Part shown: piece by piece, positions 8,555 through 59,293 of the stretch
Position numbering within the stretch: position 1 is the first letter of the stretch
How the letters are laid out: the number at the start of each line of letters is the position of its first letter
NCBI RefSeq assembly: GCF_017352155.2
Contig: NZ_CP071462.1
Coordinates: 930,001 to 994,000, forward strand
DNA from: Haloterrigena alkaliphila
Lineage (GTDB): Archaea; Halobacteriota; Halobacteria; Halobacteriales; Natrialbaceae
Direction: 5' to 3'
DNA: 64,000 bases
Position numbers and translations under genes: made by a program
The notes under the pieces: generated by a model
Told to the model about the DNA's origin: nothing
Databases searched by the model: none
The model's input: the letters and a program-made list of their open reading frames with translations, nothing else

Positions 8555-9184
8555 ATGGACGGTGAGTACGACTTCTGGCTGCTCGACCTCGACGGCACGC
8601 TCGTCGACGTCGAGTGGTCCTACACGCGGGACGTCTTCGATCGGGTCGGCGACCGACTCGGCCGGGAGTTCACCGACCGTGAGGCCGAGATCCTCTGGAG
8701 CGGCCTGACGGGCTCCCGGGACCGACAGCTCCGCGAGTGGGGGATCGAGCCCGACGAGTTCTGGACGGCCTTCCACGACGAGGAGGACCCGATGGTACGG
8801 GCCGAGCAGACCTACCTCCACGAGGACGCCGCGTTCGTCGCCGACCTCGAGGTACCCGTCGGCCTCGTCACCCACTGTCAAGAGTTCCTCTGTGAACCGG
8901 TCCTGGACGCGCTCGACATCCGCGACTGGTTCGACGCGCGCCTCTGTTGTACCCCCGAAACGGGCTGGAAGCCCGACCCGAACCCGGTCTACCGCGTGAT
9001 GGACGACCTCGGCGTCGGGAAGAACGGCCACGAAGGGGTCCTCGCGGGCGACGGTGCCGGTGACGTCGGCGCGGCCTGGAACGCCGGCCTCGACGCCATC
9101 CACGTCGAACGCGTGGGTCACGACCGGCGCGGACGCTGCGTCCGCGGCGACTACCGCGTCGAGTCGTTCGACGACTTGTTCTGA
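8555..9184 (+). CDS. HAD-superfamily hydrolase
   Basis: A 209-residue phosphatase-like protein. Motif I is LLDLDGTLVDVEWS (nucleophile and acid Asp), motif II is the VGLVTHC segment, motif III the Lys in GWKPDPNPVY, and motif IV GDGAGDVGAAW. A helical cap (about residues 18-90) places it in the phosphoglycolate phosphatase-like subgroup I. The substrate cannot be told. CTTTAC at 8523-8528 is a possible TATA box 26 bases before the ATG. Confidence 0.85.
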   Translation: MDGEYDFWLLDLDGTLVDVEWSYTRDVFDRVGDRLGREFTDREAEILWSGLTGSRDRQLREWGIEPDEFWTAFHDEEDPMVRAEQTYLHEDAAFVADLEVPVGLVTHCQEFLCEPVLDALDIRDWFDARLCCTPETGWKPDPNPVYRVMDDLGVGKNGHEGVLAGDGAGDVGAAWNAGLDAIHVERVGHDRRGRCVRGDYRVESFDDLF

Positions 9185-9292
9185 TCGACGCGCAGCAATG
9201 TGGACTCGAGTCGAGGCGAACGGGACTCGATGGGACCTCTGAGACACCGAAAGGACTTCACGAGTTCAGTTGCTGCTACCGGTAGAGACGCG

Positions 9293-9490
9293 ATGAAGTA
9301 CTGTCTGAACTGCGACTGGAGTACGAGCGCGACCGACGAACCGTCCGCCAGCGTCCGCTCCCGGGCGGCGATCGCACACCACGTCGAGACCGGTCACACG
9401 ATCGACTCGAGCGAGGGCGTCGTCCCACCCCGTATTCCGGACCTCCCCGACGCGGTCTTCGTCGGCGATCTGCTCCCCTCGAGCGATTGA
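9293..9490 (+). CDS. Small zinc-finger-like protein
   Basis: A 65-residue protein starting MKYCLNCDWS and containing AIAHHVETGHTI. The C-x2-C followed by H-H-x4-H resembles a C2H2-type single zinc finger, a common form of small haloarchaeal protein. The ATG at 9293 is chosen because it starts directly at the finger; the longer upstream reading has no protein character. No function is assigned. Confidence 0.55.
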   Translation: MKYCLNCDWSTSATDEPSASVRSRAAIAHHVETGHTIDSSEGVVPPRIPDLPDAVFVGDLLPSSD

Positions 9491-9627
9491 TCCGACGCCC
9501 GGTTCAGCGTTCTGAACGCTACCCGAAGCGGGACCTCGAGACGCTACAGAGTCGCGTTTATCTGAGGACCGATATCTGTCGACAGTAGCGCTCACGCAGG
9601 AGAGTTCGATGGAGACGCAGTAAAAAG

Positions 9628-9635
9628 AATAAATA
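9628..9635 (+). promoter_or_regulatory. TATA-like box of the 9661 membrane gene
   Basis: AATAAATA in an A-rich stretch, 25 bases before the ATG at 9661, consistent with leaderless transcription. Confidence 0.5.
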
Positions 9636-9660
9636 CGCTGGTGGAATAAGTGCGGGTAGC

Positions 9661-10095
9661 ATGTCGACCGGTTCTCCCGAGAGAGGTCGATCTATCTCCA
9701 AGCGAAAGCTGGTGGAAAACGTCTTCCTCGGAGTACTGGGCGTCTCATTTACGGTGTTTGCGGTCGGTGACACGACAGAATATCTACCGTTCATCCTGAA
9801 CAACGTAGCGGCCGTCTTAGTGGGGGTCATCACCGGAATACTGGTATTCTATCTCGTCGAGATGACGACGGCCGGGAATACCGTCGAAACGTCGTTTCGA
9901 GAATCGCAGTTGCTCACGGCAGTCGTTCTCTTCGGTCTGTTACTCGTAGCGGTTGGAATTATCGAACTGGCCGGAGGCAGTAACAGTGAGTCGGGCGTGG
10001 CCTGGGTAATCGGATTTTCCGTTATCGTTCCGATCGCCTCCGTGATATCGTATCTACGGGGACGAGGGAGCACCGCAGATCTCGACCTCTCGTAG
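9661..10095 (+). CDS. Four-helix membrane protein next to a halocin-like gene
   Basis: A 144-residue protein with about four membrane segments (near 20-38, 45-65, 84-104 and 113-133), a basic N-terminus (RGRSISKRKL) and a short polar tail. No family is recognised. Its 3' end overlaps the 3' end of the convergent halocin-like gene by 42 bases. Small integral membrane proteins often serve as immunity or transport partners of peptide antimicrobials, so a role against or with that product is possible, but this is inference from position alone. Composition is less GC-rich than its neighbours. Confidence 0.65.
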   Translation: MSTGSPERGRSISKRKLVENVFLGVLGVSFTVFAVGDTTEYLPFILNNVAAVLVGVITGILVFYLVEMTTAGNTVETSFRESQLLTAVVLFGLLLVAVGIIELAGGSNSESGVAWVIGFSVIVPIASVISYLRGRGSTADLDLS

Positions 10096-10827
10096 AGACG
10101 AGGAGTCACAGAGACTGCAGTTTTCGTCGTCGGCCACCTGCCAGAGGCTCACACCGCCACTGGCGAGACACCAGATAACGCCGGAGATGCTACCCAGTAG
10201 AACGGCCGTCGCGCAGGACCCGTATACGACGCCGATCTGGGCGAGACAACTCCAGTTGACGTCGGTACATTCCTCCGTGATGTAACTCACGCATTCGTCC
10301 GGATCTGCCGTATACAGGATGCCGATGTCTCGGTCGGTTTCGGCTTCGGGCGACGGAATATTCTCAGCACTGGATTCGTATTCGACGACTTCGCCGTCCT
10401 TGATGGAGGTGCGTTTCTCGAGTCGGTCCTCCGAATCGTACTCGGTGACGACGAAATTCGGAATCGCCTCGTCGTCTTTATCGTTCCACGTGAGAAAAAC
10501 CGACGAACCGTTCTGGCCCGGTGTGGCGAACTGGACCGTCGCGAAGCGGTACTCTTCACCGCCGTCGATGACGTGGAACGCACGGCCCGTTTGCGGCTGC
10601 GGGTGAACGGTTCGATCCAGCGATTTTCGGAGCGTCTTCACCTCCTCAGAGGACACGATCGACGAAATGATTTTTCTCTGCTCGCCGCGTTTTAGTTCTT
10701 CTACCGTCCGTTCCGGTCCGGTCGCCGTTACCGAACCGGAGAGGCCAGCAATCGAGAGGCCGGTTGCCCCCATGGTTCGTAGAACTGCTCGTCTATCCGT
10801 GATACCGTCTGTATTTCCGTCAGACAT
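10054..10827 (-). CDS. Tat-exported, Cys-rich halocin C8-like precursor
   Basis: A 257-residue protein. It begins with a Tat signal (DRRAVLRTMGATGLSIAGLS, residues about 11-30), continues with a polar middle part of about 145 residues, and ends with a compact segment of about 80 residues holding eight Cys and two hydrophobic stretches (VVYGSCATAVLLGSISGVIW and LASGGVSLWQV), followed by ADDENCSLCDSS. This matches the plan of the halocin C8 precursor: Tat signal, immunity part, C-terminal Cys-rich bacteriocin. The VADDEN-C-SL-C piece recalls halocin C8's VADEYSGCG. It has an AT-rich upstream region with a TATA-like box. Another secreted Cys-rich protein is the alternative. Confidence 0.6.
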   Translation of the reverse strand: MSDGNTDGITDRRAVLRTMGATGLSIAGLSGSVTATGPERTVEELKRGEQRKIISSIVSSEEVKTLRKSLDRTVHPQPQTGRAFHVIDGGEEYRFATVQFATPGQNGSSVFLTWNDKDDEAIPNFVVTEYDSEDRLEKRTSIKDGEVVEYESSAENIPSPEAETDRDIGILYTADPDECVSYITEECTDVNWSCLAQIGVVYGSCATAVLLGSISGVIWCLASGGVSLWQVADDENCSLCDSSSLREVEICGAPSSP

Positions 10828-11134
10828 TATCAATAAATTAGATTGAAAATTTATGAACTTAACCTAGTGTATGTATTTCCTATATGCGTTTATAGTAAGA
10901 CAATAATTCCATATATGCGCACACTATATTTCAAAATGCTATCTAATGAGCCTATATCGGAATACCGTCGGAGTTCGATATCGCCAGCGGCCGTTTCGAA
11001 CACCTCTCGTGAATGCTACGGGACGTGCTGCCCAGAACTAGTGACTCAGCGCGCTGAGCAGTGAGCGCTTGGTCGGACAGTACGACCTCTCTTCGATACG
11101 AACGGCTCGTTTACGGTTCGATTCTCGCGAAGTA
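10828..11134. promoter_or_regulatory. AT-rich region upstream of the halocin-like gene
   Basis: 307 bases with no convincing gene. Positions 10830-10960 are strikingly AT-rich for this genome. ATAAATTT-type sequence at 10848-10855 (minus strand) lies about 21-28 bases before the ATG at 10827 and fits a leaderless promoter. The rest up to 11134 is of normal composition. The 73-codon plus-strand reading inside it has no support beyond being open. Confidence 0.5.
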
Positions 11135-11788
11135 TCAGTCGAACCGCGATCCTTCGCTCGCCGGCTGGAGTTCGTCGTCGACGAGCGTCTCGTAGGCCCG
11201 CCGGAACCGTTCGGAGAGCGCCTGGTGGGAGATCCCCAGTTCGTCGGCCAACTCCTCCATCGAGATGCCGCGGGGAATCTCGAAGTAACCGTGCTCGAGG
11301 GCGGCCTCGAGGGCCTCGTGCTGTTCGGGCGTCAGTCGCGTCTCGCCCTCGACGACGCCGGTGACGTCGCTGACCCGGCGTAGATCGACGGCGATGCCGG
11401 ACGCCTCGAGGCGGTCGTAGGCGTCACAGAGCGCGTCGCGGTCGCGAAACCGGACCCTGACCTGCCACCAGCCGTTCGTGCCCCACATCTCGAGCAGGGA
11501 GCCGCCGTCGGCGAGCAGTTCGTCGCTGAGCCGCACCGTGCCGTCCTCGAACTCGACGTCGTACAGCAGTCGCGACCCGGTTTCGACGAGCAATTCGTAG
11601 CCCTCGACCGACGGATCCGCCTCGAAGGCCGCTTCGGCCGTCCCGCGGTCGACGTCGGACACCCAGAGGGACGGACGCGTCTTCGACACCGAGGACTCGA
11701 GTTCGAACGTGGCGTCGGGCGCCCGCTCGAGGGCGGTCCCCAGCGTCGTCTCCGCAGCCGGAAGCCGAAACTCGGCGATCGTGGACAT
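11135..11788 (-). CDS. Bat-type helix-turn-helix regulator (HTH-10)
   Basis: A 217-residue haloarchaeal regulator of the bacterio-opsin activator type. The N-terminal two thirds (about 1-150) is the ligand/sensor-like domain with WVSDVDRGTAEAAFEADPSV and WWQVRVRFRDRDAL. The C-terminal HTH_10 is clear: LTPEQHEALEAALEHGYFEI, then the recognition part MEELADELGISHQALSERFRR. Such proteins regulate genes in response to light, oxygen or metabolites; the target here is unknown. The ATG at 11788 is favoured over a GTG two codons upstream. Confidence 0.85.
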   Translation of the reverse strand: MSTIAEFRLPAAETTLGTALERAPDATFELESSVSKTRPSLWVSDVDRGTAEAAFEADPSVEGYELLVETGSRLLYDVEFEDGTVRLSDELLADGGSLLEMWGTNGWWQVRVRFRDRDALCDAYDRLEASGIAVDLRRVSDVTGVVEGETRLTPEQHEALEAALEHGYFEIPRGISMEELADELGISHQALSERFRRAYETLVDDELQPASEGSRFD

Positions 11789-11917
11789 TACCACTCGTAC
11801 ACCGTACTGGCGTAAAAACCGCTATCCAGTCGAAACGGAGAGTCGTCTTTACTGATACCCTCTCGAGTGGGGAGACGCCGTTTCGAATAGCCAGCCGTCC
11901 GCCACGCCGCCCGCGAC

Positions 11918-55990: not shown

Positions 55991-56136
55991 CGGCGGGCTG
56001 GGAGTGGCGCTCCCGACGCGTAGCGCACTGGAATTCTCCTCGCGGGGCTGTGAGTCCACATCGGCGGAGACACCGGTCGCTCACGAAGAGCATCTCGATG
56101 GCGCGAAAAATCGATCGTGACGAACCGCGACCGGCC

Positions 56137-56637
56137 TCAGAGACGGGGCAGGAACGCGTACAGTAACAGCCCGAAGGCCAGGTGCTGGACCATCGTTCGT
56201 TCGACGGTCGCCCGGACGTACTCCTCGTCCGCGATGGAGTACTCCTTCGTCCGGACCTTCGCGTGCATCGAGAGCACGTCCGCTTCCTCGAGGGAGTGCA
56301 GGCTCGGGTAGACGGTCCCCGGGCTGAGTTGCGCACCGAAGAGGTGGGTCAGATCGGAGAGCAGTTCCTTGCCGTGGGTCTCCTCGTGAAGAGCGATGAG
56401 CATCAGGAGAATTTCGTCCAGGTTCTCCTTGATGATTGCCTCGTCGAACTGCACGTCGTCGGTCGGCAGCGCCGCGTTGACCTGCTCCATCAGTTCGTCG
56501 AGCTCGCGCTCGACGTCCTTCGCTGACTCCGCGGTCGTTCCGAGGGAGATATCGTACGATTCCGACTGCGAATCTGCAGTCGCCGCCTTCGACAGTTCGT
56601 CGAACACGGACTCTGTGTTGGGGGTTTCCTCACGCAT
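56137..56637 (-). CDS. PadR-like transcriptional regulator
   Basis: A 166-residue protein. The N-terminal 80 residues are acidic and helical (SAKDVERELDELMEQVNAAL). The C-terminal half is a PadR-type winged helix: DEILLMLIALHEETHGKELL, LFGAQLSPGTVYPSLHSLEE, ADVLSMHAKVRTKEYSIADE, ending with a helix (TMVQHLAFGLLLYAFLPRL). The gene lies next to the archaellum operon on the same strand, so control of motility genes is possible but unproven. Confidence 0.8.
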   Translation of the reverse strand: MREETPNTESVFDELSKAATADSQSESYDISLGTTAESAKDVERELDELMEQVNAALPTDDVQFDEAIIKENLDEILLMLIALHEETHGKELLSDLTHLFGAQLSPGTVYPSLHSLEEADVLSMHAKVRTKEYSIADEEYVRATVERTMVQHLAFGLLLYAFLPRL

Positions 56638-56975
56638 TGACGATCACCAGTTGGGGGGTTCGCGAGTGGATCCGCCACAGGAATCCGTCGGCCACGCACT
56701 GCCGACGAAGGGAGACGGTCCACACACGACTACTCTGGAACTGGGACTGGGAGGTATTAAACGACAGGGGAGAGGACATACACGAATAAAATAATTATAA
56801 GATAGTATGATTTATAAAATAACGGTTGTGGGAGGGTTTGTGGGTGCTTCGGGGGAGACTGTAGATATATGGCCACGGTTGTGAAGTGATCGCATTTATA
56901 AGTGGTAATTCGTATCCTTTGTTCCGCCTATCTAGGCCATCCTATAAGAGTTGTGGCCCACTCCCGACTGAACGG
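56638..56975. promoter_or_regulatory. AT-rich region between the PadR-like gene and the archaellum operon
   Basis: 338 bases without a supportable gene. Positions 56757-56822 are strongly AT-rich (AATAAAATAATTATAAG, ATGATTTATAAAATAAC). CGGTTGTG occurs at 56823-56830 and 56876-56883, flanking an ATATAT box; CATTTATAAG at about 56893-56902 is another TATA-like site on the plus strand. TTTAATA near 56755-56761 (minus) could drive the PadR-like gene with a leader of about 90 bases. Confidence 0.45.
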
Positions 56976-57434
56976 TCAATACGTCGACGGCCCGTCGCGA
57001 ATGATGCTGACCATCTCGTCCGAATCGTCGGCGTCGTCCTCCTCGTCGATCTGTCGTTCGACTCGCCGTTCGGCCATCCGCGCGATCATTACGTGTTCCT
57101 CGAGGTCGTCGCCCCTGATCGTCGCGATGTACTCCAAACTCTGGGCGTGGGCGGCGAAGAGCGTCCCGCTGAGCGCCTCGAGGGGGTACTCGAGGGTCGT
57201 CGGTTCGTCGTAGCGCTTGTTGTGGATCTCGCCGAGCGAAAGTCCCCGCAGGTACGAGGTCATCTGTTCGCGCACGAGCGGACTGATCCAGCCCAGGTCT
57301 TCGTAGTACCGCAGGCAGTTGAGCGCGCCCGTCGTCCCGAAGGTTTCGCCGAGAAACCGGGCCCACTGAATGGTCGCGTCGGTTCGCCCGGCCGAGCGTT
57401 CGAGCGTCTCGAGGTACGGTTGTGATCCTGACAT
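56976..57434 (-). CDS. Archaellum accessory protein ArlE/ArlD-like
   Basis: A 152-residue protein with the ArlD/E (FlaD/FlaE) domain: TIQWARFLGETFGTTGALNC, LRYYEDLGWISPLVREQMTS and YLRGLSLGEI. These proteins sit at the base of the archaellum motor and, with ArlC, link it to the chemotaxis adaptor CheF. An acidic tail follows. It lies 137 bases after arlJ with its own TATA-like box, so it may be transcribed separately. It is a second ArlE-type domain besides that in arlCE. Confidence 0.85.
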   Translation of the reverse strand: MSGSQPYLETLERSAGRTDATIQWARFLGETFGTTGALNCLRYYEDLGWISPLVREQMTSYLRGLSLGEIHNKRYDEPTTLEYPLEALSGTLFAAHAQSLEYIATIRGDDLEEHVMIARMAERRVERQIDEEDDADDSDEMVSIIRDGPSTY

Positions 57435-57571: not shown

Positions 57572-59293
57572 TCACATCACGAAGTTGACCACGTACTGCG
57601 TGCTGGCCGCGACGAGCGCGCCGAGCCAGGTCAGGAAGACGAAGTGGACCAGCCCGCTGAGCAGGTGACCGCGGTCGGTGATCCGGATCATGACCGCCGA
57701 CAGCGCGGCGTTGACGAGGACCGTCGCGATCAGCAGGTACTCGATGACGACGAGGTTGTACTGCTCGGTGTGCATGAGGTTCCCCGCGACCTGGCTCTGC
57801 TCGCCGAGGTCCATCTCGCCGGTGATGTCCATCATGATCTCGACGACCTCGAGGCCGATGAAAAACGAGAAGACGCTCGCCGCGGTGATACCGTAGAGGA
57901 CGCCGATCAGCGTCGTCGTCGCCTGCTGGCGCTTTTCGCGGACCTTGAGCACCTCGTTCTGGTTCTTGCTGATCACGTTGCCCAGCACCTGCGGGTCGCC
58001 CCCCATCTGTCGGCCGACGACGTACATGTCGCCGAACTTCTGGATGAGGTAGGAGCCGGTCTCCGCGGCGAACAGCCGCCACGAGCGGATGTTGTCGATC
58101 CGCATGTTGAGCCGCTTGTAGAGGGCGTCGACGTTCGCGGTCAGCGCCCCGAAGTCCTTCTTGCGCAGGCTCTCGAGGACGCTCCCCGTCGAGGTCTGTT
58201 TGACGCTCTCGACGGTCCCGAGCGCCCGGATGAAGCTGGGAAACTCGCTGTCGCGGTCTTTGACCTTGCTCTCCTCCTGGCGCATGCGCCAGCCGGGCAG
58301 GAGCAGCGGCGTCACCGGAATCGCCGTCAGGATCGGCACCGGGACCCGCTCGGTGACGAACGGCAGATAGCCGAGCAGGGCGGCCAGAACGCCGAGGGCG
58401 AGGAGGAGGCTGCAGCCGATTCCGATGGCGAGCGCGCGCGGAATCCGAGTCATCGGCCCCTCGCCGGCCGTCTCTTCGATGTACCACGTCGGATCGTACG
58501 GCGACACGACGTGGATCGCGTAGACGAACCCTACCTGCACGATCCCGAACATGGCGACCGTGCCGGCGATGAGCAGCGTCGGACTGGTACCGATCAGGAT
58601 CGGCAGGACGATCGCGAACACGAGGACGAACGCCACCGACAGCATCATCGACATGTACAGCTCCTTCATCACGTCGAGTTTCGCCAGGTCCGACTCGTAG
58701 CGGGTGACGAACTGCTGGATGATCGTGTCCTGTTCGTCGATCAGGAACTCGCTGATCTGCTGGCCGCCACCGACCGTGTAGGCGAGTCGCTCGAGAAAGT
58801 CGGTCAGGAGCGGACTCGCGGTCTGTTTGGCGCGGATCCGACAGGCGTCGTCGAGGCTCTGGTTCCAGGTGTCGACCAGCGCGACGAGATACCCCATCTC
58901 CTCGGCCAGCGCGTCGTACTCGTCTTCCTCCGCGAGCGTCCGAAAGATCTCGACGCGGTTGATGTTCGTCATCGAGAGAACGGTGATGTGCGTCAGGAAG
59001 AGGTGAAAGCGCTGGCGGACCTGCTTTCGCTTGCGATCCTGGGAGAGTTTCGGATAGATGATCGCGACGGTCATCGCCAGCAGCCCCAGCAGGACGACCG
59101 GCAGGCCGACGAACAGCGGCAGTCCGAGTACGACCGTCAGCACAGCCCCGCCGACAAACAGGCCGAACGCGGGCGCGACCGCGAGCAGGAGATACCGCGT
59201 GGTGGCCATCTCCATGCTCGCGTACGCGCCGTTGAGCGACTTGAGGAACGATCGAGCGCTGGTGTCCGGCGCGGATTGGGTATCTGTCGACAT
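57572..59293 (-). CDS. arlJ: Archaellum membrane platform ArlJ (FlaJ)
   Basis: A 573-residue polytopic membrane protein of the T2SS/archaellum GspF-like family that anchors the motor ATPase ArlI. Two repeats of a cytoplasmic four-helix domain are seen (VRQRFHLFLTHITVLSMTNI and DSEFPSFIRALGTVESVKQT) with about nine membrane segments between and after them. The basic stretches contacting ArlI (KLSQDRKRKQVRQRF, KVREKRQQATTT) are present. Follows arlI by 30 bases. Confidence 0.93.
   Translation of the reverse strand: MSTDTQSAPDTSARSFLKSLNGAYASMEMATTRYLLLAVAPAFGLFVGGAVLTVVLGLPLFVGLPVVLLGLLAMTVAIIYPKLSQDRKRKQVRQRFHLFLTHITVLSMTNINRVEIFRTLAEEDEYDALAEEMGYLVALVDTWNQSLDDACRIRAKQTASPLLTDFLERLAYTVGGGQQISEFLIDEQDTIIQQFVTRYESDLAKLDVMKELYMSMMLSVAFVLVFAIVLPILIGTSPTLLIAGTVAMFGIVQVGFVYAIHVVSPYDPTWYIEETAGEGPMTRIPRALAIGIGCSLLLALGVLAALLGYLPFVTERVPVPILTAIPVTPLLLPGWRMRQEESKVKDRDSEFPSFIRALGTVESVKQTSTGSVLESLRKKDFGALTANVDALYKRLNMRIDNIRSWRLFAAETGSYLIQKFGDMYVVGRQMGGDPQVLGNVISKNQNEVLKVREKRQQATTTLIGVLYGITAASVFSFFIGLEVVEIMMDITGEMDLGEQSQVAGNLMHTEQYNLVVIEYLLIATVLVNAALSAVMIRITDRGHLLSGLVHFVFLTWLGALVAASTQYVVNFVM

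What the first reader, a model, noticed from the sequence alone, without database searches (positions are those of the whole stretch)
10054..10827. Candidate new halocin: Tat-exported precursor with eight-Cys C-terminal domain
The 257-residue product has a twin-arginine signal, a polar middle and a compact C-terminal domain with eight Cys and hydrophobic stretches, the same plan as the halocin C8 precursor in which the N part is the immunity protein. The gene is in an AT-rich patch unlike its surroundings. Sequence identity to halocin C8 is low except around VADDEN-C-SL-C.
Basis: partly seen in the sequence, partly recalled or inferred. Interest (0 to 1): 0.72.

Follow-up and report, generated by a model that had tools for sequence, protein, structure and literature searches.

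The report
Secreted halocin-like toxin-immunity gene pair
A salt-loving archaeon carries a small acquired pair of genes that very probably encodes an exported, cysteine-rich killing peptide and a separate membrane protein that protects the producer; it resembles the known archaeal antibiotic halocin C8 in its carrier part but has a different toxic part.

Summary
In detail: window 10827-10054 (-) encodes 257 aa with a twin-arginine signal, a polar middle free of Cys, and a C-terminal domain with eight Cys, in an AT-rich patch. The reading 'new halocin' is partly supported. No Pfam or NCBIfam model matches the protein. Profile comparison ties its N-terminal/middle part to proteins carrying the halocin C8 domain. 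The C-terminal Cys-rich domain is not detectably related to the halocin C8 domain: it belongs to a separate, unannotated family, found in 13 of 391 haloarchaeal genomes and on a Haloterrigena plasmid. A small membrane protein lies just downstream in 6 of 7 close relatives (the seventh behind a transposase) and 7 of 9 distant ones, against 1 of 210 background genes and 6 of 23 halocin C8-domain proteins. The closest relative pair is conserved together in another genus. All five congeners have a glutaredoxin-like gene at this site instead. Best explanation: an acquired bacteriocin cassette with a dedicated membrane immunity gene, laid out as in pore-forming colicins. The function is inferred. 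New variant of a known kind.

The parts
10054..10827 (-). Precursor gene, 257 aa: Tat signal (about residues 1-36), Cys-free N/middle domain (about 37-175), C-terminal Cys-rich domain (about 176-257)
   Evidence: homologues
10057..10299 (-). C-terminal Cys-rich domain, residues 177-257, presumed mature toxic peptide; 7 of its 8 Cys and one Asn (residue 191 of the precursor) conserved across the family
9661..10095 (+). Partner gene, 144 aa, four predicted membrane helices, convergent with the precursor and overlapping its 3' end by about 40 bp; proposed immunity protein
10828..10960 (-). AT-rich upstream region of the precursor, with a TATA-like CATAAATTT about 25 nt before the ATG (sequence observation only)
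9491..11134 (.). Variable interval occupied by the two-gene cassette; the five congeners carry a roughly 90-aa glutaredoxin-like gene here between the same flanking genes

Best explanation
A bacteriocin (halocin-type) cassette acquired at a variable chromosomal site. The precursor is exported by the Tat pathway. Outside the cell a protease frees the disulfide-rich, hydrophobic, acidic C-terminal peptide of about 80 residues, which kills or inhibits related haloarchaea, most likely by acting on the membrane. The convergent gene 9661-10095 encodes a small polytopic membrane protein that sits in the producer's membrane and blocks its own toxin. Shown here: the anatomy, the conserved two-gene linkage, the site swap relative to congeners, and relatedness of the carrier part to halocin C8-domain proteins. 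Inferred: export, cleavage, disulfides, toxicity, membrane target, and immunity by the partner.
For: Anatomy. Carrier part related by profile to TIGR04449 proteins: group A to H2 95.5%, E 1.6e-8, reversed control 0.1%; an HMM made without any TIGR04449-matching protein hits L058 and the G081 and G089 proteins at 6e-6. A small protein with at least 3 predicted membrane helices lies within 700 bp downstream in 6/7 close and 7/9 distant relatives, against 1/210 background genes; upstream 1/39; the seventh close relative has it beyond a transposase-type insertion. P0001's close homologue and P0002's only clear homologue among 391 class genomes lie side by side in G357 (43% and 37% identity); a second pair is conserved in G119 and G181 (55% and 51%). 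All five congeners have a different gene at the site. One relative pair is on a plasmid, both genes annotated hypothetical. In G205 the precursor carries a stop while the membrane gene is intact. Immunity genes of ionophoric colicins lie on the opposite strand with their own promoter (PMC9517006).
Against: No activity data. In Sulfolobus viruses a secreted toxin also has a small three-helix protein gene downstream, yet that protein alone did not protect and the toxin protected its producer (PMC8628083). In halocin C8 the precursor itself gives immunity. Partner proteins of different pairs are mostly not recognisably alike, and the correlation between precursor and partner similarity rests on two close pairs (Spearman 0.03). 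Structure models were too poor to use (pLDDT 35-48).
Confidence: 0.62

Rival explanations
1. Halocin C8 scheme: the N/middle part of the same precursor, once cleaved, is the immunity protein, and the neighbouring membrane protein has another role (release, receptor, or helper).
For: N part related by profile to halocin C8-domain proteins; halocin C8 precedent (PMC11509114); self-protection by a secreted Sulfolobus toxin while its three-helix neighbour did not protect.
Against: Direct likeness to halocin C8's N part is weak (22.5%, E 9e-4). The membrane gene is far more frequent beside this family than beside halocin C8-domain proteins (13/16 against 6/23).
Confidence: 0.2
2. Not a toxin: a secreted Cys-rich protein with another extracellular role (metal or redox function, adhesion), coupled to a small membrane protein.
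For: No functional test; the site holds a glutaredoxin-like gene in congeners, so a redox link cannot be excluded; many small haloarchaeal secreted proteins are uncharacterised (own knowledge).
Against: Patchy distribution (13/391 genomes), site swap, plasmid copy, broken copies, fast divergence, and a related carrier part in halocin C8-domain proteins fit a conflict system better.
Confidence: 0.15
3. A true member of the halocin C8 family whose C-terminal domain has diverged past recognition (an alternative on ancestry, compatible with either immunity scheme).
For: Same plan, related carrier part, Cys-rich hydrophobic C-terminal domain.
Against: Cys-domain profiles of the family do not match those of halocin C8-domain proteins (0.6-2.3%), while the latter match each other at 95-98% and the window family's two subgroups match at 90%; 8 Cys instead of 10 and a different spacing.
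Confidence: 0.2

Closest known systems
Halocin C8 precursor ProC8 and TIGR04449 (halocin_C8_dom) / PF22862 (Hac8_like_N)
   Same: Tat signal, polar middle, C-terminal Cys-rich hydrophobic domain of about 76-80 residues; the N/middle part is related by profile to TIGR04449-bearing proteins. What I take to be the genuine halocin C8 precursor was found in G013 (L025) and matches PF22862 at 1.7e-48.
   Different: No TIGR04449 or PF22862 match for the window protein; C-terminal domain unrelated by profile; 8 Cys not 10; separate convergent membrane-protein gene.
Pore-forming (ionophoric) colicins and their immunity genes
   Same: Immunity gene on the opposite strand with its own promoter (PMC9517006); small polytopic membrane immunity protein (own knowledge).
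   Different: No sequence relation found; colicins have receptor and translocation domains and no Tat signal (own knowledge); pore activity of the present peptide is only inferred.
Sulfolobus spindle-shaped virus toxin B310 and its neighbour C108
   Same: Secreted archaeal toxin of about 300 aa with a small three-helix gene downstream (PMC8628083).
   Different: Codirectional; C108 alone did not protect and the toxin protected itself; sequence relation not tested.
Archaeal toxins and expanded halocin C8 family of Makarova et al. 2019 (mBio 10:e00715-19; not held, own knowledge)
   Same: That survey enlarged the halocin C8 family and looked at neighbour genes; some of the present proteins may be in it.
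   Different: Could not be checked here.

Membership tests
Halocin C8 family | Twin-arginine export signal at the N terminus | tested here: met
   RR at residues 12-13 followed by a hydrophobic stretch, conserved in relatives; no signal-peptide program was run
Halocin C8 family | N-terminal domain PF22862 (Hac8_like_N) | tested here: inconclusive
   No PF22862 match in the window protein and none in its genome over cut-off; relative L005 12.6 bits against cut-off 27; profile-profile match to TIGR04449-bearing proteins of group H2 at 95.5% but to halocin C8's own group H1 only 22.5%
Halocin C8 family | C-terminal halocin C8 domain TIGR04449 | tested here: not met
   No TIGR04449 match; none in genome G000; HHalign of Cys domains 1-2%
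Halocin C8 family | Ten Cys in the mature peptide | tested here: not met
   Eight Cys, seven conserved in the family, different spacing
Halocin C8 family | The N part of the precursor confers immunity | not testable with these tools
   A separate membrane-protein gene is linked instead
Bacteriocin with dedicated membrane immunity protein (works like pore-forming colicin pairs) | Adjacent small polytopic membrane protein gene, conserved with the toxin gene | tested here: met
Bacteriocin with dedicated membrane immunity protein (works like pore-forming colicin pairs) | Toxicity to relatives, blocked by the partner | not testable with these tools
   needs culture work

The most novel reading that the evidence does not exclude
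Haloarchaea use one related exported carrier part to deliver at least two unrelated Cys-rich C-terminal killing peptides (halocin C8 type and the type described here), the second kind with its own small membrane immunity protein, usually encoded convergently: a swappable archaeal peptide-toxin system, with the halocin C8 single-gene immunity as one special case.
Probability: 0.38. Interest if true: 0.7.

Novelty: new variant of a known kind. Interest (0 to 1): 0.52.

Why it matters
Halocin C8 is the best-described archaeal peptide antibiotic, and the standard example of a single gene giving both toxin and immunity. A family with a related carrier part, a different toxic domain and a separate membrane immunity candidate would show that archaea, like bacteria, swap toxin domains and carry dedicated immunity genes. 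It gives a defined two-gene cassette, with a close pair in another genus, for direct tests of killing and protection, and a search pattern (Tat-exported Cys-rich precursor plus small membrane protein downstream) that the current family models miss.

Tried and rejected
Pfam, NCBIfam, PHROGs and PADLOC scans of both proteins: nothing meaningful. PDB sequence profiles: no match. Collection scans of genome contigs: no relative. Viral contigs: one hit (L081), rejected as a chance match in a phage HNH-like protein; two more scans empty. Phage records: none. Structure prediction without an alignment: pLDDT 47.7 and 35.3, not used for fold searches; relatives found by the genome search were not handed to the structure tool because its stated rule does not list that source. 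Precursor-partner co-divergence: Pearson 0.72 (p about 0.001) but Spearman 0.03, carried by two close pairs, so not claimed as general. Many hits match only the Tat signal and were not counted as family. One search's profile also contained L003, a TIGR04449 protein, so relation to halocin C8 was judged only from profiles without it. Bacterial promoter and terminator scan: not suited to archaea, nothing useful. Makarova et al. 2019 and Mei et al. 2008 are not held.

Full report
Observation. The minus-strand gene 10827-10054 encodes 257 residues: RR at 12-13 and a hydrophobic stretch (Tat-type signal), a polar middle without Cys, and a last third with eight Cys at 179, 187, 194, 205, 220, 237, 240 and 251. 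The patch is AT-rich: GC 0.535 for 10001-11000 against about 0.66-0.73 for most of the window.

Family. Pfam and NCBIfam give nothing for the precursor. Whole-genome searches found distant relatives: the closest, in G357 of another genus of the same family, is 43% identical over the full length and 61% over the Cys domain; others are in G119 and G181 (55% identical to each other), G016, G414, and a plasmid of Haloterrigena salifodinae (WP_204749461.1, 'hypothetical protein'), with more distant ones in G255, G291, G317, G170 and G362. A profile of the Cys domain alone matches 13 of 391 haloarchaeal genomes in 11 genera, and none of the five congeners. Seven Cys are invariant and one Asn nearly so across the family.

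Relation to halocin C8. What I recognise as the genuine halocin C8 precursor was recovered (L025; PF22862 at 1.7e-48), and TIGR04449 matches 43 of the same 391 genomes but not G000. Profile comparisons, with reversed-sequence controls, split the protein in two. The N/middle part of the window family matches that of one group of TIGR04449-bearing proteins (H2) at 95.5%, E 1.6e-8, control 0.1%; against halocin C8's own group (H1) it is weak (22.5%, E 9e-4), but H1 and H2, whose Cys domains are clearly related, match each other in this part only at 57.8%. An HMM built from the window family without any TIGR04449-matching protein also hits TIGR04449-bearing proteins, mainly through this part. The Cys domain behaves differently: window family against halocin C8-type domains 0.6-2.3%, no better than reversed controls, while the halocin C8-type groups match each other at 95-98% and the two subgroups of the window family match at 90%. 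So the carrier part is shared and the toxic part is not detectably related.

The partner gene. In the oriented loci a small ORF (60-150 aa) with at least three predicted membrane helices starts within 700 bp downstream of the precursor in 6 of 7 close relatives and 7 of 9 distant ones, against 6 of 23 TIGR04449-type loci and 1 of 210 background genes of the window's genome; upstream it is 1 of 39 (Fisher p 2e-15 for the subset of 11 loci). The background set is from one genome, the gene and helix definitions are mechanical, and the relatives are not independent, so the p value is indicative only. The seventh close relative, G414, has a 127-aa four-helix protein further down, beyond ORFs that look like a transposase insertion. 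In G362 a roughly 50-aa two-helix frame follows, below the cut-off. The partner of the window (P0002) has one clear homologue among 391 class genomes, next to the precursor in G357, 37% identical; the partners of G119 and G181 are 51% identical. Most are convergent, as in the window; those of G016, G317 and G170 are codirectional. In G205 the precursor carries an in-frame stop but the membrane gene is intact; in G007 the precursor is broken and no partner was seen. Outside the two close pairs, partners are not recognisably alike, and the precursor-partner correlation rests on those two pairs.

History of the site. In all five congeners the same flanking genes (window 8555-9490 and 11157-11800) are present in the same order at 82-89% DNA identity, with a glutaredoxin-like gene of about 90 aa (named from its sequence, not by a family search) between them instead of the cassette; G000 has only distant paralogues of that gene elsewhere (36-40%). 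The most economical reading is that the cassette replaced it in this lineage. With the plasmid copy, the broken copies and the patchy distribution this is the pattern of a conflict gene.

Mechanism. Best supported: Tat export, extracellular release of the C-terminal peptide, toxic action on relatives, and protection of the producer by the membrane protein. Halocin C8 releases a C-terminal peptide (PMC11509114; PMC12893001), and ionophoric colicins carry their immunity gene on the opposite strand with its own promoter (PMC9517006); that those immunity proteins are small polytopic membrane proteins is my own knowledge. A membrane target follows only by this analogy and from the hydrophobic, acidic character of the peptide. 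A caution is the Sulfolobus virus toxin B310: its small three-helix neighbour C108 did not protect, and the toxin itself did (PMC8628083). Immunity by the N part, as in halocin C8, therefore remains a live rival. No activity was tested, and single-sequence structure models were too poor to use.

Verdict. Not a halocin C8 by membership (its defining domain was tested and not met), but it works like one in plan. A new variant of a known kind: a related carrier part, a different Cys-rich presumed toxic domain and a separate membrane immunity candidate. Whether Makarova et al. 2019 already listed some of these proteins could not be checked.

Noticed in passing
L029, L031, L039, L056, L057, L060 (downstream of TIGR04449-type precursors): Six of 23 distinct halocin C8-domain loci also have a codirectional 116-136 aa protein with 3-4 predicted membrane helices 11-230 bp downstream, so some true halocin C8-like genes may have separate immunity too.
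   Followed up: partly
L092-L096; window 9491-11134: A glutaredoxin-like gene of about 90 aa sits at this site in all five congeners and is missing here; only distant paralogues remain in the genome.
   Followed up: yes
L100 5142-6255: Two transposase-like ORFs separate the precursor from its presumed membrane partner in G414.
   Followed up: no
L098 2757-4003; L099 3035-3532: Broken precursor copies: G205 with an in-frame stop and an intact membrane partner, G007 disrupted without partner.
   Followed up: partly
window 56137-56637 and 56640-56975: A PadR-like regulator gene beside an unusually AT-rich intergenic stretch (GC 0.58 for 56001-57000); the minus-strand ORF at 57572-59293 looks like an archaellum or pilus membrane component.
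   Followed up: no
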